Shown here: positions 27,240 through 43,508 of the stretch, piece by piece
Position numbering within the stretch: position 1 is the first letter of the stretch
Layout: the number at the start of each line of letters is the position of its first letter
From: Rubellimicrobium arenae
GTDB lineage: Bacteria > Pseudomonadota > Alphaproteobacteria > Rhodobacterales > Rhodobacteraceae
Length of the DNA: 64,000 bases
Direction: 5' to 3'
NCBI RefSeq assembly: GCF_017916275.1
Contig: NZ_JAFMST010000001.1
Location: forward strand, 310,001-374,000
The notes under the pieces: generated by a model
Told to the model about the DNA's origin: nothing
Seen by the model: only the letters and a program-made list of their open reading frames with translations
Databases searched by the model: none
Translations under genes and position numbers: made by a program

Positions 27240-27287
27240 GCCCATCTCTTGGGCTGACGCGCCGGTCCGGCTGCCCAAGAGATGGGC
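27240..27287. promoter_or_regulatory. 15-bp inverted repeat pair, probable divergent operator
   Basis: GCCCATCTCTTGGGC (27240-27254) and its exact reverse complement (27273-27287) are separated by 18 nt. Each arm is itself a small dyad (GCCCA-N5-TGGGC). The centre is 117-125 nt from both flanking start codons (27138 minus, 27381 plus), as expected for a divergent operator bound by a dimeric regulator such as the HTH-cupin protein encoded next to it. Confidence 0.65.
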
Positions 27288-27380
27288 AATCGGCGCAATC
27301 GCACCCGAACTTCAGGCATGGGGTTGACCGACGTGCCCCGGAGGTTCCAGAATTTTACCTATACTAAAACTCGGGGCCGC

Positions 27381-28022
27381 ATGACCGAATCCGCGCACAT
27401 GATCCCATCAGCCCCGGCCATCGGCGAAAGGCTGCGCCACCGACGCGTGGAGCTCGGCCTCACGCTCAAGGATGTCGCGCGGGGCGCGGGCCTGTCGACG
27501 GGGTTCATCTCCCAGGTGGAGCGGGATCTCGTGGCGCCGTCGCTTAGCTCTCTGGCCGCGATGGCGAGGATCCTGGACGTTCCGCTGGCGCAGCTGCTGC
27601 CGGATGTGCGCGGGTCGGCCCGCACGACCAGCATGCAGCGCCCGATCCACAAGGTCGGGACCGAGCCCCATCTCGGCTACGAGCGGCTGACCACGAGCTT
27701 TGCGGGAAGCGTGCTCAACGGCGTCATCATCCACGAGGAGCCGGGGCACTGGTCCGAACCCATCCGGCACGAGGGCGAGGAGATGTTCTTCGTCCTCGAG
27801 GGGGCGATCACCGTCGAGGTCGAAGGTGACCGTACGGTCCTGAACGCGGGCGACTCGCTGCACTTCTCGTCGCGCCGCCGGCACTCGACCTGGAACCACG
27901 GCACGACCGCGGCGACGATCCTGCACGTCTGCACCATGGACGTCTTCGGCGACCGCATCCCGGCCGAGACTTCGCCCGGCCATCAGGTCGGGCACCAAGA
28001 TCAAGAGGAGGACACGGAATGA
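27381..28022 (+). CDS. XRE-type HTH regulator with C-terminal cupin
   Basis: Transcription factor of 213 residues. HTH at about residues 14-68 (GERLRHRRVELGLTLKDVA, then TGFISQVERDLVAPSL). Small-molecule-binding cupin barrel at about 120-190 (HEGEEMFFVLEGAITVEVEG, then NAGDSLHFSSRRRHS). Regulators of this build (PuuR-like) usually sense the pathway substrate and control the neighbouring catabolic operon. Start at the ATG at 27381; the open frame extends 33 codons upstream through the promoter region. TATACT at 27360-27365 could be a -10 element very close to the ATG. Its end overlaps the GAF gene by 4 nt, so it is first in the operon. Confidence 0.9.
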   Translation: MTESAHMIPSAPAIGERLRHRRVELGLTLKDVARGAGLSTGFISQVERDLVAPSLSSLAAMARILDVPLAQLLPDVRGSARTTSMQRPIHKVGTEPHLGYERLTTSFAGSVLNGVIIHEEPGHWSEPIRHEGEEMFFVLEGAITVEVEGDRTVLNAGDSLHFSSRRRHSTWNHGTTAATILHVCTMDVFGDRIPAETSPGHQVGHQDQEEDTE

Positions 28023-28537
28023 CAACCGTGGAGGAAGCCCGCGCGGCGCTGGCGCGCGCCATTCAGGAGCCGGGCCAGCCCGAGCCGGCCTTTGCCGCCC
28101 TGGCGGCGCTGGTCGCAGCCGAGATCGGGGCCAGGCTTTTCACCGTCATGACCTATGACGACGAAAGCGGGCTCGCCCGTCGCCGCTGGTCCAACATGCC
28201 GGACGCCTATCCGCCCGGGGGCACCAAGCCCATGCTGCGCGACAAGTGGTCCGAGCAGGTCTTCGACCGGCAGGAACCCTTCGTCGCCAACGACATCGGC
28301 GCCATCGCCGAGGTGTTCCCGGATCATCCGCTGATCCAGTCGCTGGGCTGCGAAAGCTGCCTCAACCTGCCTGTCATCGTGGGCGGCGAGGTGATCGGCA
28401 CGCTGAACTGCCTGGACGTGGCGGGCCACTATACGCCGGAGCGCGTGACGCGGGCGCAGGAGATGCTGGCGCTTCCCGCCGCGGCCTGCCTGCTGATCGA
28501 CCGCTCGGCTGGCGACCGCATGGGAGAACGGGCATGA
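28019..28537 (+). CDS. GAF-domain protein
   Basis: A 172-residue protein made of one GAF domain (about residues 20-160), with no kinase, cyclase or DNA-binding part. Three Cys cluster at LGCESCLN and GTLNCLD. The arrangement is not identical to that of free methionine-sulfoxide reductases, so enzyme activity is not claimed. ATGA overlaps join it to the regulator before it and hyuA after it, which shows it is an integral member of the operon. It may sense the pathway's ligand or a redox signal. Confidence 0.85.
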   Translation: MTTVEEARAALARAIQEPGQPEPAFAALAALVAAEIGARLFTVMTYDDESGLARRRWSNMPDAYPPGGTKPMLRDKWSEQVFDRQEPFVANDIGAIAEVFPDHPLIQSLGCESCLNLPVIVGGEVIGTLNCLDVAGHYTPERVTRAQEMLALPAAACLLIDRSAGDRMGERA

Positions 28538-30621
28538 CCGGCACGACGATCCGGGTCGCCACCGACGTGGGCGGCACCTTCACCGACCTCGTGTGCTTCG
28601 AGACCGATGAGGCGACGGGCGAAAGCCGCGTGACCACGGCCAAGTCGGACACCACGCCCCCGAACTTCGAGCAGGGCGTCTTGGACGTCCTGCGCAAGGG
28701 CGGCGTCGATCCGTCCACCATCGGTTTCATGGCGCACGGCACCACGGTCGTCATCAACGCCCTGACCGAACGCAAGGGCGTCAAGGTCGGCCTGATCACC
28801 ACCGAAGGCTTCCGCGACACGCTGGAGATCGCGCGGGGCAACCGGCCCGACTTCTTCAACCTCCATTACGAGAAGCCGCAGCCCTTCGTGCCGCGCTATC
28901 TGCGTCGTGAGGTGCCGGGCCGCATGAACTACCTGGGCCAGGAGACCCGCCCGCTCGACCTGTCGCCGCTGGACGGCATCGTCGCAGACTTCAAGGCGGA
29001 TGGCGTGCAGGCCGTGGCGGTCGCGCTCCTGCACTCCTACGCCAACCCGGCCCACGAGGCTGCGGTGCTGGACCGCCTGCGCGAGCTCTGGCCCGAGGTC
29101 GCGGCCGTGGGCTCGCACCAGATCAGCCGCGAGTGGCGGGAATACGAGCGGACCAACACGGCCGTCCTGTCGGCCTACGTCCAGCCGGTGGCCGAGCGGT
29201 ACCTGACCCGGCTTCAGGACGGGCTCCGGCAGGAGTCCTTCGACGGAACGCTCTACGTCATGCAGTCGAACTGCGGAGTGGACAGCCTGGGGGCGGTCAG
29301 CCGCGTTCCGATCACGATGGTGGAAAGCGGCCCCGCCTCGGGCTTCTGGGGCGCGGCGGAGCTCGGCAAGCTGATCGGAGAGCCCAACGTGCTGGCGCTC
29401 GACATCGGGGGCACCACGGCCAAGTGCTCGCTGATCGAGGACGGGCAGGTCCGCATCATGACGGACTATTGGATCGAGCGGGACCGCACCTCGGCGGGCT
29501 ATCCCATCATGGTGCCGGTCGTGGATCTCGTGGAGATCGGCAACGGCGGCGGGTCGATCGCCTGGGTCGACGACTTCGCCAAGCTCCATGTCGGACCCAA
29601 GTCGGCCGGCGCCGTGCCGGGCCCGGCGGCCTACGGGCGCGGCGGGACCGAGGCGACGACGACGGACGCGAACCTCTGGCTGGGCCGGATCAACCGGAAC
29701 TACTTCTGCGGCGGCACCGTCATCGCCGACATGGCGGCCACCGCCGCGGCGCTGGACAAGGTCGCCGGGCGACTTGGGATCGACCGGGACGAGGCGGCGC
29801 GGGGCATCGTCCGCATCGCCAACAACAACATGGTGAACGCGCTCAAGCTGGTGTCGTTGAACCGGGGCCACGACCCGCGGGACTTCGTGCTCGTGGCGTT
29901 CGGGGGCGGCGGGGCCATGCACGCCGTCGCGCTTGCCCAGGAGCTGGGCGTGAAGAAGGTCGTGATCCCGGCCGGCGCCTCGGTCTTCTCGGCCTGGGGC
30001 ATGATGATGTCCGACCTGCGCCGCGACTACTTCCTGACGGCGCTCGCGGACATGGCGCCGGGCGCTGCGACGGGGATCGAGGCCCGCTTCACGGACCTCG
30101 AGGACAAGGCCCGCGCCCAGTTCGAGGCCGAGCGCATCCCCGCCGGCAAGGTCCGCTTCCTGCGCTATGGCAAGTTCCGCTACCAGAACCAGGAGCATAC
30201 GGTCGAGGTGCCCATCGAGGGGCCGGTGACGGACGACCGGCTGGCCGCCATCGCCGCCGACTTCCACGCCGCCTACGAGCGGGAATACACCTACCGCCTT
30301 CCGGCGCCGGTGGAGATGGTGGGCCTGCATCTCGTCGCCTCGGCGGAAGTGGGCAAGCTGACGCTTAAGGCGCAGCCCCTGACGGAGGAGGCGGCTTCCA
30401 GCGCCTCCAAGGGGCGGCGCAACGTCGACTACGCGCTCGACGGCATCCACGAGGCCGAGATCTACGACGGGGAGCGTCTGAAGCCCGGAATGCGCTTCGA
30501 TGGGCCCGCCATCGTCGAGGACCCGGGCACCACCGTCGTCATCCATCCCGGCAACCACGTCGAGGTGGATGCCTGGGGCAACCTCCACATCCAGTTCCCG
30601 CAGACGGAAGCCGCATCATGA
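28534..30621 (+). CDS. hyuA: Hydantoinase/oxoprolinase family, subunit A (first copy)
   Basis: A 695-residue ATP-binding subunit of the HyuA/OPLAH/acetone-carboxylase-beta family. The N-terminal ATP loop is VATDVGGTFTDLVCFE; then HGTTVVINALTERKG and the central LALDIGGTTAKCSLI, which is the second actin-fold phosphate loop. Family members couple ATP hydrolysis to opening of a cyclic amide (hydantoin, 5-oxoproline) or to carboxylation. Start at the ATG at 28534, overlapping the GAF gene by 4 nt; its stop overlaps hyuB by 4 nt. Activity requires subunit B. The substrate is not fixed by sequence. Confidence 0.93.
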   Translation: MTGTTIRVATDVGGTFTDLVCFETDEATGESRVTTAKSDTTPPNFEQGVLDVLRKGGVDPSTIGFMAHGTTVVINALTERKGVKVGLITTEGFRDTLEIARGNRPDFFNLHYEKPQPFVPRYLRREVPGRMNYLGQETRPLDLSPLDGIVADFKADGVQAVAVALLHSYANPAHEAAVLDRLRELWPEVAAVGSHQISREWREYERTNTAVLSAYVQPVAERYLTRLQDGLRQESFDGTLYVMQSNCGVDSLGAVSRVPITMVESGPASGFWGAAELGKLIGEPNVLALDIGGTTAKCSLIEDGQVRIMTDYWIERDRTSAGYPIMVPVVDLVEIGNGGGSIAWVDDFAKLHVGPKSAGAVPGPAAYGRGGTEATTTDANLWLGRINRNYFCGGTVIADMAATAAALDKVAGRLGIDRDEAARGIVRIANNNMVNALKLVSLNRGHDPRDFVLVAFGGGGAMHAVALAQELGVKKVVIPAGASVFSAWGMMMSDLRRDYFLTALADMAPGAATGIEARFTDLEDKARAQFEAERIPAGKVRFLRYGKFRYQNQEHTVEVPIEGPVTDDRLAAIAADFHAAYEREYTYRLPAPVEMVGLHLVASAEVGKLTLKAQPLTEEAASSASKGRRNVDYALDGIHEAEIYDGERLKPGMRFDGPAIVEDPGTTVVIHPGNHVEVDAWGNLHIQFPQTEAAS

Positions 30622-32270
30622 CGCTCGATCCGATCACGGCCGAGATCATCCAGAACTCGCTCCAGGCCACCGCCGACGAGATGTTCGCGGCGATGAAGAA
30701 GACGGCCATGAGCTCGATCATCTACGAGGTGCTCGATATGGGCACCGGGATCACCGACGCCGACGGGGAGCTGGCCTCGTCGGGCGCGGGGATCCCGGCC
30801 TTCGTGGGCGTGCTCGACAAGGCGGTGAAGGTGATCCTGTCGCGGCACCGGAAGGAGGACCTCCGGCCCGGCGACGTCTTCGCCACCAACGATCCCTATT
30901 ACGGCGGCGTCACGCACCTTAACGACATCATCGTGGCCATGCCCGTCTTTGCCGACGGGCAGCTCATCGCCTGGACGGCCAACATCGCCCACAACTCGGA
31001 CGTGGGTGGCATGGCGCCGGGGTCGCTGACCGGGGACGCAACCGAGATCTTCCAGGAAGGCCTGCGCCTGCCGGCCATCCGGATCATCGCCGGAGGCGAG
31101 GCGATCCAGCCGGTCTTCGACATCATCAAGGTCAATTCCCGGATGCCCGACGTGCTCGAGGGGGACGTCTGGGCGGCGATCTCCTCGGTCCGGATCGGGG
31201 CGCGGCGGCTGGAGGAGCTGGCGGCCAAGTACGGGGCCGAGACCTTCCGCGCCGCCGTGGCCAAGTTCATGGACTTCGGCGAGGCGGTCACCCGCAAGTC
31301 GCTGGCCACGCTGCCCAAGGGCACCTACGAGCTGAACGAGGAGCAGGACGACGGGCGCATCTTCAACGTCAAGATCACCATCGCCGAGGACAGGTTCATC
31401 GTGGACCTGCGGGACAACCCGGACCAGTCCCCGGGCCCGGTGAACGCCTGCCGCGACGGGGTGATGATCGCGGCGCAGATGCTGCTCAAGTCGCTGACCG
31501 ACCCCCGGGGCCCGGCCAACGGCGGCTCGTTCCGGCCCATCGAGCTGCTGACCCGCAAGGGGTCGGTCTTCGACGCCAAGGAGCCCGCGGCGATCGGCTT
31601 CTACTACGAGGTCGAGCTCCGCGCCTACGACCTGATGTGGCGCTGCCTTGCGCCCGTCGTGCCGGACCTGCTGGGCGCGGGGCACTTCGCCTCGGTCTGC
31701 GGGACGTTCATCGGCGGCATCCATCCCGACACCGGCCGGCAGTACACCATCATCGAGCCGCAGGTCGGCGGCTGGGGGGGCAGCGCGGGGCGCGACGGCA
31801 ACAGCGCGATCTTCTCGTCCTTCCACGGCGAGACGTACAACTGCCCCGCCGAAATCAACGAGGCCCGCAACGGCGTCCTGATCGACCGGATGGAGCTGAA
31901 CACCGCCCCCGGCGGCGAAGGGGAGTTCACCGGTGGGCGCGGCGTCATCATCGATTACCGCCCGCGTGCGGACAACGGCTACCTGACCGTGGGCTACACC
32001 CGTTCCCGCTTCCCGGCCTGGGGTTTGGCGGGCGGGCGCGACGGGTCGCCCAACTTCGTCCGCTTCATCCCGCAGCAGGGCGAACCGCAGGATTATGCCT
32101 TCGTGTCGGGCCTCAAGACCCGCGCGGGCGATCTGATCCGCGTCATCACCGGCAACGGCGGCGGCCTGGGCGACCCCCGGACGCGCGACCCGGACCTGGT
32201 GCGCCGCGACATCCGCGACGGCCTCATCACCCCTGAACGCGCCAAGGAGGTCTATGGTGTCGAGGCCTGA
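30618..32270 (+). CDS. hyuB: Hydantoinase/oxoprolinase family, subunit B (first copy)
   Basis: A 550-residue HyuB-family subunit. N-terminal PITAEIIQNSLQATADEM is the family start. The metal-binding region is GDVFATNDPYYGGVTHLND, followed by AHNSDVGG and a Gly-rich centre (QVGGWGGSAGRDG). The C-terminal GNGGGLGDP motif closes the family. It works as a complex with subunit A, to which it is coupled by a 4-nt overlap. It differs clearly from the second copy at 41790, so the two pairs probably have different substrates. Confidence 0.93.
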   Translation: MTLDPITAEIIQNSLQATADEMFAAMKKTAMSSIIYEVLDMGTGITDADGELASSGAGIPAFVGVLDKAVKVILSRHRKEDLRPGDVFATNDPYYGGVTHLNDIIVAMPVFADGQLIAWTANIAHNSDVGGMAPGSLTGDATEIFQEGLRLPAIRIIAGGEAIQPVFDIIKVNSRMPDVLEGDVWAAISSVRIGARRLEELAAKYGAETFRAAVAKFMDFGEAVTRKSLATLPKGTYELNEEQDDGRIFNVKITIAEDRFIVDLRDNPDQSPGPVNACRDGVMIAAQMLLKSLTDPRGPANGGSFRPIELLTRKGSVFDAKEPAAIGFYYEVELRAYDLMWRCLAPVVPDLLGAGHFASVCGTFIGGIHPDTGRQYTIIEPQVGGWGGSAGRDGNSAIFSSFHGETYNCPAEINEARNGVLIDRMELNTAPGGEGEFTGGRGVIIDYRPRADNGYLTVGYTRSRFPAWGLAGGRDGSPNFVRFIPQQGEPQDYAFVSGLKTRAGDLIRVITGNGGGLGDPRTRDPDLVRRDIRDGLITPERAKEVYGVEA

Positions 32271-32297
32271 TCTTTCCCGGTCCCAAGGAGGCACATC

Positions 32298-33386
32298 ATG
32301 ACCGCACGACTGACCCGCCTGCGCGACCGCATGGCCGAGACCGGGACCGATCTCCTGGCGCTGGGACCCGGAGCGCACATGCAGTGGCTCCTGGGGTTCC
32401 ATCCCCATGCGGACGAGAGGCCCTGTCTCCTGCTGGTGGGGCCGAAGGGCGCCGCCTTCCTGATGCCCAAGCTCAACGCCGACTCCGCGGCCGAGTTCAC
32501 CTCGCTGCCGATGCACCGCTGGTCCGACGACGAAGGCCCGAGCGCGGCGCTCGCCGCGTCGCTGGCGGCCGTCGGCGGAGAAGGCGCGCGGTCCGTCGCC
32601 CTGGACGAGACGATGCGGCTCGACTTCGGTCTCCTGCTGCTCGACCAGTTGCCGGGCGCGGCGCGGACCTTCTGCGACGACACGGTAGGCCGGCTGCGGA
32701 TGTCCAAGGACGCCGAGGAATGGGCGACGCTGAAGGCCGAGGCGGCCATCGCCGACGCCGCCCTGAAGACCGCCTGGGCCGAGATGCGGCCCGGCATGAC
32801 GGAGTCGCAGGTCGCCGACATCATCAAGGCGAGCTTCGCGGCCTCGGGGGCGAAGGCGCTCTTCACCATCATCGGAGCCGGGCGCAATGGCGCCTTCCCG
32901 CACCACGCGACCGGGGAGACCGTCCTGCGCGAAGGCGACGCCGTGGTCATGGACGTGGGCGGCACCAAGAGCGGGATGTCCTCGGACATCACCCGCATGG
33001 CCGTCGTGGGGCAGGCGCCCGAAGGCTACGCGGAGGTCCATGCGGTGGTCGAGGCCGCCGTGCAGGCGGCCATGGCGGCGGCGCGGCCCGGCGTGAAGGC
33101 GCATGTGGTGGACGATGCCGCCCGTGGGGTCATCACGGCGGCGGGCTACGGCGACTACTTCCTGCACCGCACCGGGCACGGTCTGGGCGTGGAGATCCAC
33201 GAGCCGCCTTACCTCACTTCCGTCTCCGAAACGGTGCTGGAGGAAGGGGCCGTCTTCTCCATCGAGCCAGGCATCTACCTGCCCGACCGCTTTGGCATCC
33301 GGCTGGAGGAGATCGTCTACCTGACCAAGGATGGGCCGCAGATCCTGTCGTCGCTGCCCCGTGACGTCAGGGTGGTGGGACGCTGA
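32298..33386 (+). CDS. M24 metallopeptidase (Xaa-Pro dipeptidase-like)
   Basis: A 362-residue cytosolic pita-bread enzyme. N-terminal creatinase-like domain (about 1-130), then the catalytic domain with all five metal ligands visible: Asp219 (VVMDVGGT), Asp230 (SSDITRM), His294 (HRTGHGLG), Glu323 (SIEPGIYLP) and Glu337 (RLEEIVYL). This means a dinuclear-metal peptidase, likely cutting Xaa-Pro or a related imide bond. Creatinase, which has the same fold and often sits beside hydantoinases, lacks these ligands. AAGGAGG precedes the ATG, 27 nt after hyuB. Confidence 0.92.
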   Translation: MTARLTRLRDRMAETGTDLLALGPGAHMQWLLGFHPHADERPCLLLVGPKGAAFLMPKLNADSAAEFTSLPMHRWSDDEGPSAALAASLAAVGGEGARSVALDETMRLDFGLLLLDQLPGAARTFCDDTVGRLRMSKDAEEWATLKAEAAIADAALKTAWAEMRPGMTESQVADIIKASFAASGAKALFTIIGAGRNGAFPHHATGETVLREGDAVVMDVGGTKSGMSSDITRMAVVGQAPEGYAEVHAVVEAAVQAAMAAARPGVKAHVVDDAARGVITAAGYGDYFLHRTGHGLGVEIHEPPYLTSVSETVLEEGAVFSIEPGIYLPDRFGIRLEEIVYLTKDGPQILSSLPRDVRVVGR

Positions 33387-33699: not shown

Positions 33700-35295
33700 A
33701 TGACGATGAGAAAGACGCTCCTCGCGACGCTTCTCGCCACGACGGCCGCCTTTGCGGCGCCGGCCATGGCCGAACGCGTGCTCCGGCTCGATGAAAGCCC
33801 GGTGGGCGAGATCGACCCCGCCAAGGGGGTCGACTACGCCGACACGGTGCTGGCCGTGAACCTCTACGAGACCCTGGTCTACCCGACCCAGGGCGGGCCC
33901 GGCGTGCAGCCGATGCTGGCGACCGAATGGACCATCGACGGGTCCACCTACACCTTCAAGCTCCGGGACGATGCCGTCTTTTCGTCGGGCAATCCCGTCA
34001 CCGCGGCCGACGTGGTCTATTCCTTCGATCGCCTGATGGCGATGGGGCAGGGCTCGGCCAGCCTGTTCGTGGGGCGGGTCGCCGGGGTCGAGGCCGTCGA
34101 CGACCACACCGTCAGGTTCCAGCTCTCCGAGCCCTTCGCGCCGTTCCTTGCGGCGCTGAGCCGCCTTTCGATCGTCGACAGCAAGACTCTCGCCGAACAC
34201 TATGGCGAGGGCAGCTACGGCGAATTCCGCGATTATGCGGACGCCTGGCTGTCGCAGAACAGCGCCGGAAGCGGGGCCTACATGGTCCAGTCGCACGATC
34301 CGCAGACCGAGACGGTCATGGTGCGCAATCCTAACTACAAGGGGGTTGTCGATCCCGCCGCGCCCGAGACGGTGCGTTACCGCTACGGACTGGAGGCCTC
34401 GACGGTGCGCGCCCTGATGTCGCGCGGCGAGCATGACATCTCCTCCCTGTGGCTTCCCCCCGAGGTGCTCAAGGCCATGGCCGATGAAGGCACGGTGCAC
34501 CTTGCGCCCGAGCCGGGCGGCACGGGCGAGTATATCAAGCTCAACACGCAGCGCGCGCCGCTCGATGACGTGCACTGCCGTCGCGCCCTGATGTACGCCT
34601 ACGACTATGCCACCACGGTCCAGCTCCTGCAGGTCACGCCAGACCTCGCCCAGGGGATCCCGATGAACGGCGCCTTGCCCATGGGCCTGACGGGCCACGA
34701 TCCCGCCGCGCCCGGGTTCACGCAGGACTTGGCCCGCGCCCAGTCCGAGCTGGCGGAATGCCAGTACGACCCGGCACAGTATCCCCTCGACATCGCCTGG
34801 ATCGCCGAGGTGCCAGCGCGTGAACGCCTCGCCCTTCTCATGCAGGCGACCTTCAGCCAGCTCGGCTTCACGGTGAACGTCGTCCGGACCCCCTGGGCGC
34901 TCCTGACCGAGCAAGTGACCGAGCCGGCCACCGCGCCCCACGCCGTGGAAATCGCGGTGACGGCGCTGACGCCCGACCCGGACTCGCTGCTGTACAACAT
35001 GTACAGCTCCAAGGTCCCGCCGACCTGGATGTCCGCCGAGCACCTGCAGGATGAGGAGGTCGACCGCCTGCTCGAGGCCGGGCGCACCGAGACCGACGAA
35101 GGCAAGCGGGCGGAGATCTACAAGCAGCTCAACGCGCGCCTGACCGAACTGGCGCCCGACATCTTCGCCTACGAGTTCACCGGCGCCTACGCGATCCGCA
35201 ACGGCGTCGAGGTGCCCGCGCTCGAGGATGATTCGAAGCGGTATCCGCTCCAGAGCTTCAACATGCTGTTCAAGGACATGCGGGTCACCGAGTGA
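33700..35295 (+). CDS. ABC importer solute-binding protein (SBP family 5)
   Basis: Periplasmic binding protein of 531 residues with a Sec signal peptide (RKTLLATLLATTAAFAAPAMA, cleavage near residue 25). The mature protein starts ERVLRLDESPVGEIDPAKG and follows the peptide/nickel/opine-binding family, including the YTFKLRDDAVFSSGNPVTAADVVYSFDR segment (shown in parts: FKLRDDAVF, then VTAADVVYSFDR). It delivers substrate to the permease encoded just downstream. ATG at 33700 with AACAGGGA upstream; a second ATG two codons on is possible. Typical ligands are di- or oligopeptides. Confidence 0.92.
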   Translation: MTMRKTLLATLLATTAAFAAPAMAERVLRLDESPVGEIDPAKGVDYADTVLAVNLYETLVYPTQGGPGVQPMLATEWTIDGSTYTFKLRDDAVFSSGNPVTAADVVYSFDRLMAMGQGSASLFVGRVAGVEAVDDHTVRFQLSEPFAPFLAALSRLSIVDSKTLAEHYGEGSYGEFRDYADAWLSQNSAGSGAYMVQSHDPQTETVMVRNPNYKGVVDPAAPETVRYRYGLEASTVRALMSRGEHDISSLWLPPEVLKAMADEGTVHLAPEPGGTGEYIKLNTQRAPLDDVHCRRALMYAYDYATTVQLLQVTPDLAQGIPMNGALPMGLTGHDPAAPGFTQDLARAQSELAECQYDPAQYPLDIAWIAEVPARERLALLMQATFSQLGFTVNVVRTPWALLTEQVTEPATAPHAVEIAVTALTPDPDSLLYNMYSSKVPPTWMSAEHLQDEEVDRLLEAGRTETDEGKRAEIYKQLNARLTELAPDIFAYEFTGAYAIRNGVEVPALEDDSKRYPLQSFNMLFKDMRVTE

Positions 35296-35359
35296 TCCGC
35301 TGACCTGTTCCGCCGCGCGGGGTTCCGGCCCTGCGCGGATCATCCATCGGGGATTTCCC

Positions 35360-36136: not shown

Positions 36137-37167
36137 TGCCGATCCTACGACTTCTCCTGCGCCGGCTCGGGGTCTCGGTCCTCGTGCTGTTCGGCGTGTC
36201 GCTTCTGATCTTCTGCGTCGCCCGCGTGGTGCCGGGCGATCCGGCGCGCATCGCCCTTGGCCCCAACGCCACCCAGGAGCAGGTGGATGCCCTTCGCGCG
36301 GAACGCCACTTGGATGAGCCGATCGCGGTCCAGTATCTCTACTTCCTGCGCGACCTCGCGCACGGCGACCTTGGGACCTCGCTCTACACCAAGAGGCCGG
36401 TGACCACCGACATCGCCTCGTATCTGCCCGCCACCCTGGAGCTCGTGCTGGTGGCCGGGTTGATGATGATCGTCCTGGGGATCCCGCTCGGCATCCTGTC
36501 GGCCCGGTTCAAGGGACGTTGGATGGACCACCTCGCCCGGCTTCTCGCGGTGACGACCGTCTGCACGCCCGCCTTTGTCTGGGCGGTCATCCTCCAGCTG
36601 CTGCTGGCCTATCTTTGGCCCGTCTTCCCGCTGGAAGGCCGCTTGCCCACCGACGTCGCGCCACCCCCTGGGATAACGGGCTTCTACCTGATCGACTCCC
36701 TTCTGGCCGGTGAGCCACGGACCTTCGCCGTGACGGCCTATCACCTCGTCCTGCCCTCGCTCGCGCTTGCGCTGTCGGGCATCGGCCAGACAGCACGGCT
36801 CACCCGGTCCTCCATGATCGAGACCTACCGCCGGCCCTACATCGAGATGTCGCGCGCCTACGGCTTCGCCGAGCGGCGGATCGCGCGCCGCTACGCCTTC
36901 CGGCCCGCGTTGATCCCGACCCTGACGATCCTGGGGCTCGACTTCGCCGCCATGCTGGCCAACGCCTTCCTGGTGGAACGGGTCTTCGGCTGGTCCGGGC
37001 TGTCGCGCTACGGCGTCGAGGTGATCCTGCGCAAGGATCTGGATGCGATCGTCGGCACCGTCATGGTGATCGCCGGGATGTTCCTTCTCACCAACCTGAT
37101 CGTGGACGTGCTCGTGTCCGTCATCAATCCGCGCATTCGACTGGGCGAGGGGAGGGCCAAGGCATGA
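36136..37167 (+). CDS. ABC transporter permease, DppB/OppB type
   Basis: Inner-membrane permease of 343 residues. N-terminal helix LGVSVLVLFGVSLLIFCVARVVPGDPA is the DppB-type start (here cited as LGVSVLVLFGVSL and VVPGDPA). Six membrane segments. The EAA loop contacting the ATPases lies in YGFAERRIARRYAFRPAL. Coupled by overlaps to the racemase before it and the second permease after it. Confidence 0.94.
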   Translation: MPILRLLLRRLGVSVLVLFGVSLLIFCVARVVPGDPARIALGPNATQEQVDALRAERHLDEPIAVQYLYFLRDLAHGDLGTSLYTKRPVTTDIASYLPATLELVLVAGLMMIVLGIPLGILSARFKGRWMDHLARLLAVTTVCTPAFVWAVILQLLLAYLWPVFPLEGRLPTDVAPPPGITGFYLIDSLLAGEPRTFAVTAYHLVLPSLALALSGIGQTARLTRSSMIETYRRPYIEMSRAYGFAERRIARRYAFRPALIPTLTILGLDFAAMLANAFLVERVFGWSGLSRYGVEVILRKDLDAIVGTVMVIAGMFLLTNLIVDVLVSVINPRIRLGEGRAKA

Positions 37168-38012
37168 GCACGCGTCCGTCCTCCGTCGCCTGGACCGAAT
37201 TCCGATCCAACCCCATCTCCCTCCTGGGTCTCGGGCTGGTCATCCTCTGCGTCGGGGCGGCCCTCCTGGCCGACTGGATCACGCCCTATCCGACGCATGT
37301 CGGACCGATCGGAGACTTCACCGCCATCAACCAGGGGCCGTCCGCCGCGCACTGGTTCGGCACCGACACCATCGGCCGGGACGTCCTGACCCGGATCGTC
37401 TTCGGCTTCCGGCTGTCGCTGGTGATGGCGGCGCTGGTGCTGGCGATCTCCATGCCCGTCGGCGTCATCCTCGGGCTCCTGGCCGGCTACATCGGCGGCT
37501 GGGTCGAGTTCCTGATCATGCGGCTGACCGACATCTTCCTGGCGATCCCGCCGCTCGTGCTGGCCATGGCGATCATGGGCTTCCTGCCCGCAACGCTGAC
37601 CAACGCGATGCTGGCCGTCACCGTGATGTGGTGGCCCTGGTACACGCGGCTGGTCTACAACCTCGTGCGGAGCGAGGCGCGCGAGGGCTATGTCCTCGCC
37701 GCCGAGGTGATCGGCGCCTCGGCCCCGCACGTGATGTTCCGCGAGATCCTGCCCAACTGCGCCCCCGCGGTCCTGACCAAGCTGACGCTGGACGTGGGCT
37801 TCGTGGTGCTGATGGTGTCATCGCTGTCCTTCCTGGGCCTGGGCGTGCAGCCGCCCACGCCCGACCTCGGGTCCATGGTCGCGGACGGGGCCAAGTACAT
37901 GCCGGACGCCTGGTGGCTGTCCGTCTTTCCGGCGCTCGCCATCCTCGTCCTCGTGCTCGGGTTCAACCTGCTGGGCGACGGGCTGCGCGAAGCCTTCGAC
38001 GCGGAGGTCTGA
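37164..38012 (+). CDS. ABC transporter permease, DppC/OppC type
   Basis: A 282-residue partner permease. It has the typical N-terminal segment with one helix, then HWFGTDTIGRDVLTRIVFG, the DppC signature, then five further helices and an EAA loop (AAEVIGASAPHVMFREILP). The ATGA overlap with DppB implies stoichiometric synthesis. It forms the channel with the preceding permease. Confidence 0.94.
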   Translation: MSTRPSSVAWTEFRSNPISLLGLGLVILCVGAALLADWITPYPTHVGPIGDFTAINQGPSAAHWFGTDTIGRDVLTRIVFGFRLSLVMAALVLAISMPVGVILGLLAGYIGGWVEFLIMRLTDIFLAIPPLVLAMAIMGFLPATLTNAMLAVTVMWWPWYTRLVYNLVRSEAREGYVLAAEVIGASAPHVMFREILPNCAPAVLTKLTLDVGFVVLMVSSLSFLGLGVQPPTPDLGSMVADGAKYMPDAWWLSVFPALAILVLVLGFNLLGDGLREAFDAEV

Positions 38013-38015
38013 CGG

Positions 38016-38905
38016 ATGCCGGACGATATCGTGCTCAGGATCGCGGACCTCCGGCTTGGGTTCCGCCGCGGTCGCCACATCGCGGAGGTGCTGCACGGCA
38101 TCTCGCTCCATGTCCGCCGCGGCGAGAAGGTCGCCCTGGTGGGCGAGAGCGGGTCGGGCAAGTCGGTGACCGCGCGGCTCGCGCTCGGGCGGCTCCAGCA
38201 GGAGAAGGGAACGATCGTCTCCGGCGCCGTCGAGGTCGCCGGGATCGAGGCCACGCGCGAACCCGCCCGCATCGCGGCCGCGCGGGGCCGGCTCGTGTCG
38301 ATGATCTTCCAGGACCCCACCTCAGCGCTCAATCCCGTCTTCCGGATCGGCGAGGTGTTCGAGGAGGTCCTGCGTGCCGGAGGGCAGAGGCTCACGCGGC
38401 AGGCCGCGCGGGAGCGCGCGGCGAAAGCGCTGGCCGAGGTTCACATCCCCGACCCGGAACGCTGCCTGGACAGCTATCCCTTCCAGTTGTCGGGCGGCAT
38501 GAACCAGCGGGTGATGATCGCCATGGCGCTGGCGAACGAGCCGGCGCTGCTGCTGGCGGACGAGCCGGGAACCGCTCTCGACGTGACGGTCCAGGCGCAG
38601 ACGCTGCGGCTCATGGACGAGATGACCGAGCGGCACGGGACCGCGGTGCTCTTCATCTCGCACAACCTGTCGGTCGTCCGCGAGTTCGCGGACCGCGTTT
38701 ACGTCATCTACCGCGGCCACATCGTGGAGCATGGGCGGACTGCCCAGATCTTTGCCGAGCCCCGGCATCCCTACACGCGCGCGCTGATGCAGGCCGCGCC
38801 CAAGCTCGTGGCGGCGGGCCTTCCCGACCTGCCCGAAACCAGCCCGGCCTTTCGCGACCCTCTGGTGGTCCACGAAGGTTGCGGCGAACCCGGCGAGGTG
38901 ACGGC

Positions 38906-38909
<4 letters not shown>
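38016..38909 (+). CDS. ABC transporter ATPase, DppD/OppD type
   Basis: ATPase of 297 residues. Walker A GESGSGKS (43-50), Q-loop in MIFQDPTSALNPVF, signature LSGGMNQRV, Walker B LLLADEPGTALD, and the C-terminal oligopeptide-transporter extension (HPYTRALMQAAPKL). Four bases separate it from the permease. Its ATGA overlap with the next ATPase shows they are made together as a heterodimer. Confidence 0.94.
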
Positions 38910-39730
<821 letters not shown>

Positions 39731-39764
39731 CCGCATCCATCACGACCCATCAGAAAGGACCACC

Positions 39765-41786
39765 GTGGCCACACGCATTGGCGTCGACATCGGCGGCACC
39801 TTCACCGATCTCGTCTATTATGACGACGAGACCGGGGAGACCGTCGAGGCTAAAGTCCCCACAGTCCCCCATGCGCCCGAAGAGGGTGTCGTCCATGCCG
39901 TGCGCGACCATGTTCCGCGCCACGTCGTGGAGCGGGCCGCGTTCTTCCTGCACGGCACGACGGTGGGGCTGAACGCCCTCCTCGAGCGGCGGGGCGCGAC
40001 CGTCGGCCTCCTGGCCACCGAGGGCTTCCGCGACGTGCTCGAGATCCGGCGCGGCGACCGGGCCGAGATGTACAACCTGTTCTGGCGCCAGCCCGAGCCG
40101 CTGGTGCCCCGCTTCCGCCGCCTGGGCGTGCCCGAACGCGTCATGGCCACCGGGGAGGTGCACCGTCCGCTGGACGAGGCCGCGGCGCGCGCCGCGATCG
40201 CCCAGCTCCTTGCGACCGAGGTGGATTCGGTCGCGGTCTGCCTGATGAACGCCTACGCCAACCCGGTTCACGAGCTTCGGCTCGAGGCTTTGCTCCGCGA
40301 GGCGGGATTCGAGGGCGGCATTTCGCTGTCGCACCGCATCTCGGGCGAGTTCCGGGAATACGAGCGCACCTCGACCACGGTGATCGATGCCTTCGTGCGC
40401 GGCCGCATGTCCAACTATCTCCAGCGGCTCGACGCCCGCCTGCGCGAGCTGGGCTTCGGCGGCACGACGCTCATCACCCGCTCGGGCTCGGGGTCCATGA
40501 CCTTCGCCGAAGCCGAGGACCGCCCGTTCGAGACCATCATGTCCGGGCCCGTCGGCGGCGCGCATGGCGCGTCCGAGTTCGCCAAGGTCCTGGGCATCGA
40601 CGCGCTGATCACAGCCGACGTGGGCGGCACGAGCTTCGACACGGCGCTCGTGCTCAACGGCGAGCCGCAGGTGCTCTACGAAGGCTCCATCGACGGGATG
40701 CCGGTCCAGACGCCCTGGGTGGATGTCCGGTCCATCGGGGCAGGGGGCGGATCGCTCGCCCACGTGGATCGGGGCGGCCTGATGCGCGTGGGACCGCAGA
40801 GCGCCGGAGCGGTTCCTGGCCCCGCCGCCTACGGCAAGGGGGGGACCGAGCCCGCGCTGACCGACGCCGCCGCCCATCTCGGCATGCTGGGACCGGGCGA
40901 GCTCGCGTCGGGCATCACGCTGGACCTGGCCGCAGCCGAAGGCGCGCTGGGACGCGTGGCCCAGCGGCTTGGTCAGGATGTGGAAACCGTGGCGACCGGC
41001 GTCCTTCGCATCGCCACTGCCGCCATGGCCGGGGCCATGCGGGAGGTCACGGTGGAGCAGGGGCTCGACCCGAGGTCCATGGTGCTCCTGCCCTTCGGTG
41101 GCGCCGGCCCCCTGATGGCCGTGCTCCTGGCCGAGGAGCTGGGAATGCGGCGGATCATCGTGCCGCCTTACGCTGGCAACTTCTCAGCCTGGGGTCTTCT
41201 GGGCGCGGACATGGTGCAGTCGGCGGCCCGGACCCTGGTCACTGTCCTGGACGAGGCAGGGCTCGCGTCCGCGAACGGGCTGCTGGGCGAGCTCTTCGGG
41301 ACGCTGGGCCAGCGCAGCGCCCGGCCCGACGCGACGGTGGCCAGCGCGCGCCTGGATCTGCGCTACCGCGGGCAGGAGCATTCGCTCACGCTGGACGTGC
41401 CGCTGGACGGGCTGCGGATCGAGGCGGCGCCAGAGACTCTCCGCGCGTCCTTTGCCGAAGAGTACCGCAAGACCTTCGGCGGCGTCCTCGATGCGGCGGT
41501 CGAGATCGTGGCCGTGCGCGCGACCTACACGGTCCACCTCCCCCCGCGCGAGATGAAGGTTTCCGCATCTAAGGCCAGCGATGCCGCGGCCCGCTCCGTC
41601 GAGGCGCACTCCTTTGCCCATGGGCGGCGGATGCCGTTCCTCGTTCTGCCCCGGACGTCGATCGCGCGACCCGTGGATGGTCCCGCCATCGTCACGGAGG
41701 CCACGTCCACGCTTTATGTCGATGCGGGCTGGCGGGTTGCCCCTGGCGCGCATGGCGAACTCCTCCTCGAAAAGGTGAAAGGCTAG
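39765..41786 (+). CDS. hyuA: Hydantoinase/oxoprolinase family, subunit A (second copy)
   Basis: A 673-residue HyuA-family subunit starting at a GTG (39765) with AGAAAGGA upstream. Translation begins (V/M)ATRIGVDIGGTFTDLVYY, the canonical start; earlier in-frame codons are unrelated. It shows HGTTVGLNALLERRG and the central ITADVGGTSFDTALVL phosphate loop. It is only moderately similar to the first copy, for instance in the region after the ATP loop. Three bases separate it from its own hyuB. Confidence 0.93.
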   Translation: MATRIGVDIGGTFTDLVYYDDETGETVEAKVPTVPHAPEEGVVHAVRDHVPRHVVERAAFFLHGTTVGLNALLERRGATVGLLATEGFRDVLEIRRGDRAEMYNLFWRQPEPLVPRFRRLGVPERVMATGEVHRPLDEAAARAAIAQLLATEVDSVAVCLMNAYANPVHELRLEALLREAGFEGGISLSHRISGEFREYERTSTTVIDAFVRGRMSNYLQRLDARLRELGFGGTTLITRSGSGSMTFAEAEDRPFETIMSGPVGGAHGASEFAKVLGIDALITADVGGTSFDTALVLNGEPQVLYEGSIDGMPVQTPWVDVRSIGAGGGSLAHVDRGGLMRVGPQSAGAVPGPAAYGKGGTEPALTDAAAHLGMLGPGELASGITLDLAAAEGALGRVAQRLGQDVETVATGVLRIATAAMAGAMREVTVEQGLDPRSMVLLPFGGAGPLMAVLLAEELGMRRIIVPPYAGNFSAWGLLGADMVQSAARTLVTVLDEAGLASANGLLGELFGTLGQRSARPDATVASARLDLRYRGQEHSLTLDVPLDGLRIEAAPETLRASFAEEYRKTFGGVLDAAVEIVAVRATYTVHLPPREMKVSASKASDAAARSVEAHSFAHGRRMPFLVLPRTSIARPVDGPAIVTEATSTLYVDAGWRVAPGAHGELLLEKVKG

Positions 41787-41789
41787 GCC

Positions 41790-43508
41790 ATGACCATGCA
41801 GGACACCGTGCTCCACCGCGCGGGCATCTCGCGCACCAAGGCCACGGACGCCGTGGACCCGATCACCACCGAGGTCGTCCGCCATGCCCTGAACTCGGCG
41901 GCGAACCAGATGAAGCGGGCGCTGGTCCGCACGGCCTTTTCTCCGGTCATCTACGAGGTGCTGGACTTCGCGGTGGCGCTCTATGACCGGGATGTTCGGC
42001 TGCTCGCGCAGGCGCCGTCGCTGCCGATGTTCATGGGGACGCTGAACTTCTGCGTGATCGAGGCCGTAAAGGGCATCGGAGGGGAGGCCAGGCTCAACGA
42101 GGGCGACATCATCATCTACAACTGGCCCTACGGGACCGGGTCGCACCCGCAGGACCTCGCCGTGGTGATGCCGGCGTTCCACGACGGCCAGCTGGTCGGC
42201 TATGCGGCGATCAAGGGGCACTGGCTCGATATCGCCGGCAAGGACCCCTACTGCACCGATACCATCGACGTATTCCAGGAAGGCACGATCTACCCTGGCG
42301 TCAAGATCGTGAGCCGGGGCGAGCTGAACGACGAGATCTACCGCATCATCCTCGCCAACTCGCGTGTGCCCAAGATGATCGCCGGCGACCTCAACGCCGA
42401 GATCGTGGGCGTTCGGACCGGCGTCCGCGCCCTGCTGGAGGTGGTCGAGAGGTTCGGACCCGAGGTGTTCGGCCGGGCGGTGGAGGAAATGTTCGACCAC
42501 GGTGAGAGGGTCGTGCGGGACTACTTCCGCCGCATCCCCGACGGCCGCTACATCGGACATGGCGTCATGGACGGCAACGGGGTCGAGCCCGGCGAGGTGC
42601 CCTTCCAGGTGGCCGTCGAGGTGCGGGGCGATGGCGTGCGCCTCGACTTCTCGGGCGTGCCGGGACAGCAGGCCGGCCCGATCAACTGCCCCGTGCCTTC
42701 GACCATCTCCACGAGCCGGGTGGCCATCTCCATGCTGGCCGGCATGGGCGAGGCCCCGAACGAAGGGCACTTCCGCGCCGTCGAGGTCGTGACGCGACCC
42801 GGGACCATGTTCCATCCCCTGCCGCCGGCGCCTTGCTTCCTTTACGGCTGGCCCGCGCTCCAGGCCATCGAGGTCATCTACCAGGCGATCAGCACGGCGG
42901 CGCCGGACCTCGTGCCCGCGATGTCGGGCGGCTGCATCTGCTCGCTGGTCCACTGGGGCACCCGCGAGGCGACGGGCGAGCCCTGGGCCGACGGCGCGCC
43001 GCACCCGACCGGGCAGGGCGCCTGGCGCGGGGGCGACGGGGGCACCATGCTCCATATCTCGGAAAGCGCGACGCGCTTCTCGCCTGTCGAGGTCTGGGAA
43101 AGCCGCAATCCCTGGCTCGTCGAGCGGATGGAGCTGGCGCAGGACAGCTGCGGGCCGGGCGAATGGCGCGGCGGCCTGGGCATCGACTTCGACTTCCGGA
43201 TGCTGGAGGACACCTATGTCACCACCTCCGTGGAGCGGACCAAGAACCCGCCCTGGGGCCTGGAGGGCGGGCAAAGCGCCCGGGCCAACGACGCGCTGAT
43301 CCTGCGGCAGGACGGGACCGTCGAGTCCCGGCCCAAGCACACCCGGATCGCCGTGCGGAAGGGCGACGTCCTGCGGCTCTCGACCGGCGGGGGTGGCGGC
43401 TTTGGCGATCCTGGGGGACGTTCCCCCGAGGCGGTCCGCAGGGACCTGGCCAACGGCTACATCTCGGAAGAGTTCGCACGTCGCCACCATCCGCAGGCCT
43501 TCGACTAG
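41790..43508 (+). CDS. hyuB: Hydantoinase/oxoprolinase family, subunit B (second copy)
   Basis: A 572-residue HyuB-family subunit. After a short leader, DPITTEVVRHALNSAANQM is the family start. It has GDIIIYNWPYGTGSHPQD where the first copy has the metal-binding TNDPYYGG pattern, so the site differs, and ends with STGGGGGFGDPGGR. It is the last gene of the cluster, followed by a strong hairpin. Alternative ATG at 41796. The variant motif suggests a reaction different from that of the first pair. Confidence 0.92.
   Translation: MTMQDTVLHRAGISRTKATDAVDPITTEVVRHALNSAANQMKRALVRTAFSPVIYEVLDFAVALYDRDVRLLAQAPSLPMFMGTLNFCVIEAVKGIGGEARLNEGDIIIYNWPYGTGSHPQDLAVVMPAFHDGQLVGYAAIKGHWLDIAGKDPYCTDTIDVFQEGTIYPGVKIVSRGELNDEIYRIILANSRVPKMIAGDLNAEIVGVRTGVRALLEVVERFGPEVFGRAVEEMFDHGERVVRDYFRRIPDGRYIGHGVMDGNGVEPGEVPFQVAVEVRGDGVRLDFSGVPGQQAGPINCPVPSTISTSRVAISMLAGMGEAPNEGHFRAVEVVTRPGTMFHPLPPAPCFLYGWPALQAIEVIYQAISTAAPDLVPAMSGGCICSLVHWGTREATGEPWADGAPHPTGQGAWRGGDGGTMLHISESATRFSPVEVWESRNPWLVERMELAQDSCGPGEWRGGLGIDFDFRMLEDTYVTTSVERTKNPPWGLEGGQSARANDALILRQDGTVESRPKHTRIAVRKGDVLRLSTGGGGGFGDPGGRSPEAVRRDLANGYISEEFARRHHPQAFD

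What the first reader, a model, noticed from the sequence alone, without database searches (positions are those of the whole stretch)
27381..43508. Sixteen-kb cluster with two HyuAB pairs, M24 peptidase, racemase and a dedicated importer
Twelve same-strand genes, mostly joined by 1- or 4-nt overlaps, combine an HTH-cupin regulator, a GAF protein, two different HyuA/HyuB pairs, an M24 metallopeptidase, a solute-binding protein, a hydantoin/Asp-Glu racemase and a full Dpp-type ABC importer. HyuAB enzymes open cyclic amides with ATP, M24 enzymes cut Xaa-Pro-type bonds, and the importer family takes up peptides. The ordered set suggests a pathway that imports a small peptide or imide, cleaves it, opens a hydantoin- or oxoproline-like ring and corrects stereochemistry. 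I know of no described pathway with exactly this set, so it is my lead candidate for an undescribed system.
Basis: partly seen in the sequence, partly recalled or inferred. Interest (0 to 1): 0.85.

Follow-up and report, generated by a model that had tools for sequence, protein, structure and literature searches.

The report
Probable proline cyclic-dipeptide breakdown gene cluster
A 13-gene block in an alphaproteobacterium, with close relatives in many other bacteria, looks like a kit to import a small ring-shaped proline compound (most likely a cyclic dipeptide), flip its handedness, open the ring with ATP and cut out proline; the searches made here showed no tested pathway of this kind.

Summary
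The cluster is a widely conserved unit: 213 relatives of HyuB1 in a collection of 84,980 genomes, with regulator, importer, GAF, HyuAB, racemase and M24 recurring in the 80 best loci and a reordered copy on a Thermus plasmid. The core has ONE HyuAB pair, often plus a lone second HyuB; HyuAB2 is an accessory of another HyuA division. Best reading: catabolism of proline-containing cyclic dipeptides. The racemase falls with racemases of ring amides; 18 of 31 relatives carry the full OpaE-type pocket, and NozR of this family is a proven diketopiperazine isomerase (PMC10156859). The binding protein lacks both DppA residues that hold a linear dipeptide. A Xaa-Pro-type hydrolase is supplied by different M24 or M38 lineages, and related HyuAB sit beside proline dehydrogenase/PruA in Parageobacillus and Rhodococcus. 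A shared operator lies before the regulator in 39 of 59 loci and, without mismatch, once in the own genome. Against: the window's racemase fits one of four signature positions, the window lacks lone HyuB and reductase, and the substrate is untested.

The parts
27240..27287 (.). inverted repeat, 20-nt arms with 8-nt loop, holding an exact 15-mer and its reverse complement; regulatory site or terminator, role unknown
   Evidence: the 15-mer occurs without mismatch only in these two arms in the whole genome
27353..27369 (-). conserved operator TTTTAGTATAGGTAAAA (consensus TTTTAGTATTnGTAAAA) before the regulator gene
   Evidence: 8-mer core in 39 of 59 upstream regions against 30 of 2950 random 300-mers; only no-mismatch site in 4.55 Mb
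27381..28022 (+). HTH-cupin regulator (PuuR-like architecture, below the PuuR cut-off)
   Evidence: orthologue upstream in 54 of 64 loci with at least 9 kb upstream
28019..28537 (+). stand-alone GAF protein, probable ligand-binding/sensor partner; weaker GAF relatives also lie beside HyuAB with other importers
   Evidence: 49 of 64
28534..30621 (+). HyuA1, ATP-binding subunit of ATP-dependent cyclic-amide hydrolase
30618..32270 (+). HyuB1, metal-binding subunit
32298..33386 (+). M24 metallopeptidase with Creatinase_N domain, Xaa-Pro dipeptidase/aminopeptidase type
33700..35295 (+). family-5 solute-binding protein lacking the DppA residues that hold a linear dipeptide
35360..36136 (+). Asp/Glu/hydantoin racemase family, ring-amide racemase/epimerase
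36136..37167 (+). DppB-type permease
37164..38012 (+). DppC-type permease
38016..38909 (+). DppD-type ATPase
   Evidence: sequence; 40% identical to DppF; orthologues; not itself scanned against a family library
38906..39730 (+). DppF-type ATPase
   Evidence: ABC_tran
39765..41786 (+). HyuA2 (GTG start likely; an ATG at 39708 would overlap dppF), accessory pair
41790..43508 (+). HyuB2, accessory pair

Best explanation
A catabolic operon for proline-containing cyclic dipeptides (2,5-diketopiperazines, cyclo(Xaa-Pro)). Proposed course: the Dpp-type ABC importer brings in the neutral ring; the racemase-family protein epimerises the acidic alpha-carbon of the ring so that D,L rings become substrates; HyuA1B1 uses ATP to activate and open one ring amide, giving a linear dipeptide; the M24 enzyme cuts the Xaa-Pro bond, and proline goes to ordinary proline catabolism. 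The HTH-cupin protein, perhaps with the GAF protein, senses the compound and controls the operon through one operator. Shown here: gene content, conservation, intact catalytic residues, loss of the linear-dipeptide anchors in the binding protein, ring-racemase fold, operator, replacement of M24 by other hydrolases in some loci, proline genes beside some related HyuAB. Inferred: the substrate, the order of steps, and the roles of GAF, lone HyuB, the MDR reductase and HyuAB2.
For: (1) One unit: in 80 loci (some cut short by contig ends; any hit at E<=1e-12, either strand) HyuA1 in 79, HTH in 59, DppB/C/D in 57, GAF in 56, M24 in 53, SBP in 53, Rac in 50; same strand and enough flank: HTH 54/64, GAF 49/64, full importer 49/64 (42 upstream, 7 downstream), M24 at 50% identity or more 47/70, Rac 38/70, second HyuB 43/70, M24 or Rac 56/70. 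Thermus plasmid: same set reordered, GAF not seen. (2) Racemase: model pLDDT 90.3; top nine Foldseek hits are OpaE, allantoin racemases and a hydantoin racemase, before arylmalonate decarboxylase and aspartate racemases; pocket positions V/I 28, Y/F 20, V/I 26, G 26 of 31, all four together in 18 of 31 (counted from the rows), as PMC12661438 gives for OpaE-like enzymes (passages); NozR of this family isomerises cyclo-Trp-Trp (PMC10156859, passages); prolyl alpha-protons in diketopiperazines are unusually acidic (PMC8159430, abstract). (3) Binding protein: DppA R383 is a gap in 39 of 39 and D436 is never Asp in those 39; these residues hold the dipeptide termini (PMC12136057, passages); DppB E41/R42 are P in 62 and N in 56 of 66 rows, E. 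coli itself included. (4) Xaa-Pro hydrolase: M24 of L151 groups with the Novosphingobium M24 (100/100), though its HyuA nests with canonical ones; L122 and L169 have an M38 enzyme whose best model is a Xaa-Pro dipeptidase, below cut-off. (5) pruA and proline dehydrogenase in the HyuAB-M24-racemase block of Parageobacillus and near HyuAB in Rhodococcus; proline-racemase-family gene directly after HyuAB in Devosia and about 6 kb away in one A. vitis plasmid. (6) HyuAB also sits with NCS1, MFS or PF02653-type ABC importers.
Against: No substrate was tested. The window's own racemase has V9 but H14, A118, T119, i.e. one of four OpaE-like positions, and NozR, the proven diketopiperazine isomerase, has by the same paper a hybrid signature that most cluster racemases do not share. 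A canonical M24 is missing within 5 kb downstream in 23 of 70 loci, and Rac in 32 of 70 (in the second gene order Rac lies further off). M24 and M38 enzymes are not always proline-specific. L135 has an M20 ArgE/DapE-type hydrolase, L121 an S15 hydrolase, L138 an N-formylglutamate amidohydrolase, L125/L139 a glutamate 5-kinase, none with a prolidase seen; L168, L170, L181 and L147 show no proline-linked gene in what was read, nor does a second A. vitis plasmid (L195). Two of 60 binding proteins do have Asp at the DppA D436 position. NCBIfam cut-offs for the caprolactamase, acetophenone carboxylase and Xaa-Pro dipeptidase models are not reached. The tree sample was chosen by hand.
Confidence: 0.48

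Rival explanations
1. Utilisation of a 5-substituted hydantoin, as in the classic hyuABCE set: the racemase racemises the hydantoin, HyuAB opens it to an N-carbamoyl amino acid, and the M24 enzyme takes the place of the carbamoylase.
For: Racemase family and HyuAB match; the window's racemase keeps the Thr of allantoin-hydantoin racemases at one pocket position (T119); NCS1-type permeases, the family of known hydantoin carriers (recalled), follow HyuAB in L151 and L170; closest solved HyuA is an N-methylhydantoinase.
Against: No conserved carbamoylase: the only further family in more than ten of 82 loci is an MDR reductase (clustering of unassigned ORFs, not a direct carbamoylase search). No Asn/Asp of allantoin-hydantoin racemases in the 30 rows with a residue there. 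Proline genes nearby have no role.
Confidence: 0.2
2. Uptake and opening of a pyroglutamyl-type lactam (5-oxoproline peptide or opine lactam such as agropinic acid), as in agropinic-acid catabolism where a Dpp-type importer feeds a HyuAB-like delactamase (recalled, no call).
For: The agropinic-acid binding protein AgaA is among the structural neighbours of the SBP (rank 27); glutamate 5-kinase sits before HyuAB in Bradyrhizobium and M. tianshanense.
Against: Does not need a ring racemase or a Xaa-Pro-type hydrolase; AgaA is one of many about equally close family-5 proteins.
Confidence: 0.13
3. Another proline-linked cyclic amide or imide (not a diketopiperazine), such as a proline hydantoin or a hydroxyproline-derived lactam, handled by the same step types.
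For: The proline-linked evidence fits any proline-releasing ring; the Parageobacillus paper proposed proline and hydroxyproline use (PMC4593210, passages).
Against: No concrete natural compound known to me explains racemase, ring opener and Xaa-Pro hydrolase together as simply as cyclo(Xaa-Pro).
Confidence: 0.14
4. No single pathway: an importer operon and separate HyuAB operons that merely lie together.
For: 313-nt gap between M24 and SBP; HyuAB1 relatives also live without this importer; HyuAB2 is usually absent; the strict operator core occurs once in the window, not before SBP.
Against: Importer, HyuAB1, GAF, M24 and Rac lie together again and again in more than one order, and without GAF on a plasmid of another phylum.
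Confidence: 0.05

Closest known systems
hyuABCE hydantoin-utilisation genes (Pseudomonas sp. NS671; hyuABC named in a passage of PMC8453981, HyuE recalled)
   Same: ATP-dependent HyuAB plus a hydantoin-racemase-family protein
   Different: no conserved carbamoylase seen; an M24 Xaa-Pro-type hydrolase, GAF protein and Dpp-type importer instead
Caprolactamase CapAB of Pseudomonas jessenii (6yra; PMC8453981, passages)
   Same: same two-subunit family; ATP-site aspartates and metal tetrad conserved
   Different: NCBIfam caprolactamase cut-off not met (HyuA1 510, HyuB1 226 bits against 1000); CapA Asp302 is Lys297 in HyuA1; an importer, racemase and peptidase are part of the present set
NozR diketopiperazine isomerase and OpaE epimerase (PMC10156859, PMC12661438, passages)
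   Same: Asp/Glu racemase family, two catalytic Cys, OpaE-like hydrophobic pocket in 18 of 31 relatives; OpaE is the top hit by sequence and by fold
   Different: those are biosynthetic; here the racemase sits in what looks like a catabolic cluster; the window copy has only part of the signature, and NozR itself has a hybrid one
DppABCDF dipeptide importer (PMC12136057, passages)
   Same: same subunit set and family-5 binding-protein fold
   Different: lacks R383 and D436 of DppA and E41/R42 of DppB
Parageobacillus thermoglucosidasius pGEOTH01 cluster (PMC4593210, passages; L184)
   Same: racemase, HyuA, HyuB, XRE and cupin genes, M24; [quoted passage not shown]
   Different: MFS carrier instead of ABC importer; carries its own pruA and proline dehydrogenase; HyuB only 43% identical; no function tested in the passages read
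Perzborn et al. 2013 diketopiperazine-degrading strains (PMC3852281, abstract and outline)
   Same: three strains that hydrolyse hydantoins and dihydropyrimidines also cleave diketopiperazines; the peptidases tested there did not
   Different: the abstract names no genes or enzymes for these strains

Membership tests
ATP-dependent HyuAB lactamase/hydantoinase family | Hydantoinase_A and Hydantoinase_B domains in two subunits | tested here: met
   both pairs
ATP-dependent HyuAB lactamase/hydantoinase family | ATP-site Asp (CapA D11, D295) and metal tetrad Asp-His-Asp-His (CapB) | tested here: met
   HyuA D11 in 102 of 105 rows (3 gaps), D290 in 105 of 105 (a few loci are in that set twice); HyuB tetrad in 149 of 149 rows
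ATP-dependent HyuAB lactamase/hydantoinase family | ATP-dependent ring opening of a cyclic amide | not testable with these tools
   needs enzyme assay
hyuABCE hydantoin pathway | carbamoylase HyuC in the cluster | tested here: not met
   none among the 13 window genes (DppD not scanned); no such family among unassigned ORF clusters shared by more than ten of 82 loci; no direct carbamoylase search was run
hyuABCE hydantoin pathway | allantoin-hydantoin racemase residue Asn/Asp at the KpAllR N12 position | tested here: not met
   V 24, I 4, G 1, A 1, gap 1 of 31
NozR/OpaE-type cyclic-peptide epimerase | two catalytic Cys | tested here: met
   31 of 31
NozR/OpaE-type cyclic-peptide epimerase | hydrophobic four-position pocket signature of OpaE-like enzymes | tested here: inconclusive
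   18 of 31 rows fit at all four positions, the window copy at 1 of 4
Dpp dipeptide importer | DppA R383 and D436 that bind the dipeptide termini | tested here: not met
M24 Xaa-Pro dipeptidase/aminopeptidase | Creatinase_N + Peptidase_M24 domains and five metal ligands | tested here: met
M24 Xaa-Pro dipeptidase/aminopeptidase | cleavage of Xaa-Pro bonds | not testable with these tools
   NCBIfam best model PepQ_Arch 182 bits, below its cut-off 630

The most novel reading that the evidence does not exclude
A widespread, horizontally moving pathway in which bacteria eat proline diketopiperazines (common bioactive and signalling rings): a dedicated ring importer, a diketopiperazine epimerase, an ATP-driven ring opener and a Xaa-Pro hydrolase under one local operator, with a lone second HyuB that may swap onto HyuA1 to open rings of another configuration or side chain. 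It could act as a quenching system for cyclic-dipeptide signals as well as a food pathway.
Probability: 0.38. Interest if true: 0.8.

Novelty: new variant of a known kind. Interest (0 to 1): 0.62.

Why it matters
[quoted passage not shown] If the reading is right, this gives genes, a regulator and a testable mechanism for their breakdown, chiefly in alphaproteobacteria, with members in a gammaproteobacterium (Candidatus Thioglobus, L152), in a record filed as Roseateles, on a Thermus plasmid and, in variant form, in Bacillota and Actinomycetota. It would assign a function to part of the large HyuAB family and to a Dpp-type importer subfamily that is easily annotated as peptide transport.

Tried and rejected
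Rejected: the two HyuAB pairs as one balanced machine (HyuAB2 rare and of another division). Carbamate-kinase link: the kinase before HyuAB in L125/L139 scores as glutamate 5-kinase, so no carbamoyl-phosphate step. GAF protein as a free-methionine-sulfoxide-reductase-like enzyme: only one Cys is conserved at 90% or more. X299/X348 of the Pseudochrobactrum/L167 variants: no Pfam or NCBIfam hit; taken, from its sequence, as an outer-membrane channel, not proven. HyuA Lys297 in place of CapA Asp302 as a clade marker: it also occurs in outgroups, so it marks a broad division only. The second operator-like site at C11:95477 (one mismatch) was looked at only for ORFs and similarity to the cluster genes. 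pdb_via comparison: library absent. Literature: ten searches; bear most on HyuAB, diketopiperazines and this gene set; none listed a tested pathway of this kind, though listings were capped (20 titles of 50, 20 of 109); the library holds open-licence PMC papers only. Agropinic-acid catabolism was searched and no such paper was listed (20 of 1,688 shown).
Full report
OBSERVATION. The window belongs to a 4.55-Mb genome in 39 contigs; G005, in the same genus, has the contig length of Rubellimicrobium sp. CFH 75288, so the host is a Rubellimicrobium-like Rhodobacterales (inference). Between 27381 and 43508 lie 13 genes on the + strand: HTH-cupin regulator, GAF protein, HyuA1, HyuB1, M24 peptidase, family-5 SBP, Asp/Glu/hydantoin racemase, DppB, DppC, DppD, DppF, HyuA2, HyuB2. 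Six of 12 junctions overlap by 1 or 4 nt; the M24-SBP gap is 313 nt. The two pairs are 36% (HyuA) and 33% (HyuB) identical. A third HyuB lies elsewhere in the genome (C37).

CONSERVATION. HyuB1 was found at E<=1e-100 in 17 of 294 other genomes of the family that were searched. In genome contigs 213 stretches encoded a relative and the best 80, all at 70% identity or more, were kept. In those 80, some cut short by contig ends, a hit at E<=1e-12 on either strand was found for HyuA1 in 79, HTH in 59, DppB/C/D in 57, GAF in 56, M24 and SBP in 53, Rac in 50. On the same strand and with enough flank (64 loci with 9 kb upstream, 70 with 5 kb downstream): HTH 54/64, GAF 49/64, importer 42/64 upstream and 7/64 downstream, M24 (50% identity or more) 47/70, Rac 38/70, a second HyuB at 44-64% identity 43/70, M24 or Rac 56/70. 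The usual order is HTH-SBP-DppBCDF-GAF-HyuA1-HyuB1-Rac-M24-(MDR reductase)-lone HyuB; a second order, to which the window belongs, is HTH-GAF-HyuA1-HyuB1-M24-(MDR)-lone HyuB-SBP-(Rac)-DppBCDF-(HyuA2-HyuB2). The window has lost, or never had, the lone HyuB and the MDR gene. The MDR reductase is the only further ORF family in more than ten of 82 loci (15 loci). On a plasmid of Thermus thermophilus SG0.5JP17-16 the set stands in a third order: XRE, cupin, racemase, SBP, permeases, ATPases, M24, HyuA, HyuB, second HyuB; no GAF hit there. HyuB1 relatives at E<=1e-180 are rare in evenly drawn samples: 2 of 384 other genomes of the class, 6 of 397 others of the phylum.

ONE PAIR OR TWO. HyuA2 lies outside the 28-row clade that holds HyuA1 (long branches, so its exact place is unsure), and at the position of CapA Asp302 it has Asp where HyuA1 has Lys. 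A HyuA2 orthologue (71-88%) was seen in L084, L089, L104 and L115, 4 of 80 loci, a few others being cut before that place; the HyuA2-labelled hit in L082 is 35% identical and on the other strand. HyuB2 relatives at E<=1e-200 were found in 3 of 294 other family genomes: two in this same cluster, one (G021) beside another Dpp-type importer. So HyuAB2 is an accessory, perhaps for a second ring type.

RACEMASE. Both catalytic Cys are kept in 31 of 31. The model (pLDDT 90.3) is nearest, by Foldseek, to OpaE, then allantoin racemases and a hydantoin racemase, with arylmalonate decarboxylase and aspartate racemases lower: a racemase for ring amides rather than free amino acids. PMC12661438 (passages) gives residues that part allantoin-hydantoin racemases (Asn/Asp, Met, Thr/Ser, Thr) from OpaE-like ones (V/I/L, Y/F/W, V/I/L, G/P). 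Mapped through the printed alignment, the 31 racemases aligned (window, cluster loci, the Thermus and Parageobacillus ones and two Novosphingobium copies) show V/I 28, Y/F 20, V/I 26, G 26; 18 rows fit at all four positions; the first position is never Asn/Asp in the 30 rows that have a residue there. The window's own copy shows V, H, A, T, so it fits at one position only, and T is what allantoin-hydantoin racemases have there; this is told against the reading. NozR, of this family, turns cyclo-L-Trp-L-Trp into its D isomers and needs both Cys (PMC10156859, passages), but its pocket signature is described as a hybrid, so the cluster racemases resemble OpaE more than NozR. Prolyl alpha-protons in diketopiperazines are unusually acidic (PMC8159430, abstract).

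IMPORTER. In E. coli DppA, R383 and D436 hold the carboxyl and amino ends of a dipeptide, and the double charge reversal abolishes binding (PMC12136057, passages); loss of D408 (mature numbering) was likewise taken to exclude dipeptides in HbpA2 proteins (PMC3295651, passages). Against E. coli DppA (L178), R383 falls in a gap in 39 of 39 cluster-type binding proteins aligned (one of these, L179:6076, is a 32% paralogue) and D436 is V 23, R 5, L 3, Q 2, A 2, N 2, M 1, T 1; in a wider set of 60, two have Asp. The DppB residues that touch them, E41 and R42, are P in 62 and N in 56 of 66 rows, E. coli and some neighbouring importers included; the same change may be common in other family-5 systems, so it is only supportive. 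Hence a linear zwitterionic dipeptide is an unlikely ligand; a neutral ring fits. The SBP model (pLDDT 89.8) resembles many family-5 proteins, OppA and DppA among them, about equally and names no ligand.

SECOND HYDROLASE AND PROLINE. The M24 enzyme has full metal ligands and aligns over nearly its whole length with Pyrococcus/Thermococcus dipeptidase and Xaa-Pro enzymes. It is swapped in some lineages. L151 (Pseudochrobactrum) has HyuA nested among canonical ones but an M24 that groups with the Novosphingobium one (100/100); Thermus and L167 have distant M24s (28 and 25% identity; long branches, place unsure). L122 has an M38 amidohydrolase whose best NCBIfam model is Xaa-Pro dipeptidase (238 bits, cut-off 500), L136 has its homologue, and L169 another (232 bits). 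[quoted passage not shown] In Rhodococcus qingshengii pruA and proline dehydrogenase lie just before sugar-ABC-HyuA-HyuB, on the other strand. Devosia has a proline-racemase-family gene right after HyuAB and A. vitis VAR03-1 one about 6 kb upstream on the other strand; a second A. vitis plasmid shows none in the stretch read. Of the 28 HyuA1-clade rows of the tree (hand-picked sample) I count 14 with M24 (that of Planococcus L192 annotated in pieces), 3 with M38, 1 with pruA/proline dehydrogenase only, 2 with proline racemase family, 1 with an S15 hydrolase (L121), 1 with M20 (L135), 2 with glutamate 5-kinase (L125, L139) and 4 with none seen (L147, L168, L170, L181). Four loci of a neighbouring HyuA group (L188, L191, L193, L194) have a LuxR-HyuB-HyuA-ABC set and no annotated proline gene.

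OTHER IMPORTERS. Near relatives of HyuAB1 lie with NCS1 permeases (L151, L170), an MFS carrier (L167, L168) or sugar-type (PF02653) ABC importers with a GAF relative (L169, L182, L183). None of these is a typical peptide carrier; a small ring fits all.

REGULATION. Upstream of the HTH-cupin gene the core TTTAGTAT is found in 39 of 59 loci against 30 of 2950 random 300-mers from the same loci; the fuller form is TTTTAGTATTnGTAAAA, in at least ten loci as an inverted pair about 50 bp apart. In the window it is at 27353-27369, the only no-mismatch site in the whole genome; one site with one mismatch lies at C11:95477. A 20-nt inverted repeat at 27240-27287 lies just before it.

MECHANISM AND NOVELTY. 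Taking the steps together, cyclo(Xaa-Pro) is the simplest substrate: ring import, epimerisation, ATP-dependent opening, Xaa-Pro cleavage, proline oxidation. By analogy with hyuABCE the M24 enzyme stands where the carbamoylase HyuC would be, which argues that the opened product is a peptide and not a carbamoyl amino acid (inference). HyuB rows at 44-64% identity to HyuB1, mostly the lone HyuB, keep the metal tetrad in 53 of 53; the lone HyuB has no HyuA of its own next to it in the loci, so it may share HyuA1 (inference). The literature searches named in Tried and rejected listed no tested pathway of this kind; the library is limited to open-licence papers and listings were capped. I therefore call it a new variant of a known kind (HyuAB pathways), with the diketopiperazine assignment at about even odds.

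Noticed in passing
L125, L137, L139 (Bradyrhizobium neotropicale, B. uaiense, Mesorhizobium tianshanense): HyuAB1 relatives (73-75% identical) lie beside an amino-acid-kinase family gene that scores as glutamate 5-kinase in L125 and L139 (L137 by clustering only); L125 and L139 also have an ATP-grasp amino-acid ligase, and L125 a PhzF and NRPS modules: HyuAB1 seems to have been drawn into a biosynthetic cluster.
   Followed up: partly
L150 (JAHREI010000011.1, titled Bacillus subtilis SK6B4): This contig carries a Pseudochrobactrum-like HyuAB locus (its X299 homologue is 97% identical to that of L151); the record looks mislabelled or contaminated.
   Followed up: no
window 27100-27160: The + strand (sequence) reads ENIVDLGLHDLRHSF, like box II of tyrosine recombinases (motif recalled); a possible integrase remnant just before the cluster. 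No Pfam hit in ORF 26753-27367 and no tRNA in the window.
   Followed up: partly
window 23339-25798: Caspase-domain (Peptidase_C14) protein with TPR/Sel1 repeats, 819 aa.
   Followed up: no
L187 (Novosphingobium sp. EMRT-2), 11031-15665: A second, oppositely directed set beside the HyuAB-M24 block: TonB receptor, racemase, DUF917 protein and another HyuA.
   Followed up: no
L188, L190, L191, L193, L194: A separate recurrent set, LuxR-HyuB-HyuA followed by an ABC importer (cut short by insertion elements in L190), with no annotated proline gene; function unknown.
   Followed up: no
HyuA1 residue 297: Lys (TTAK) in 100 of 105 HyuA rows (a few loci in the set twice) where caprolactamase CapA has Asp302 beside the presumed phosphorylation site; HyuA2 has Asp. 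May mark a mechanistic division of the HyuA family.
   Followed up: partly
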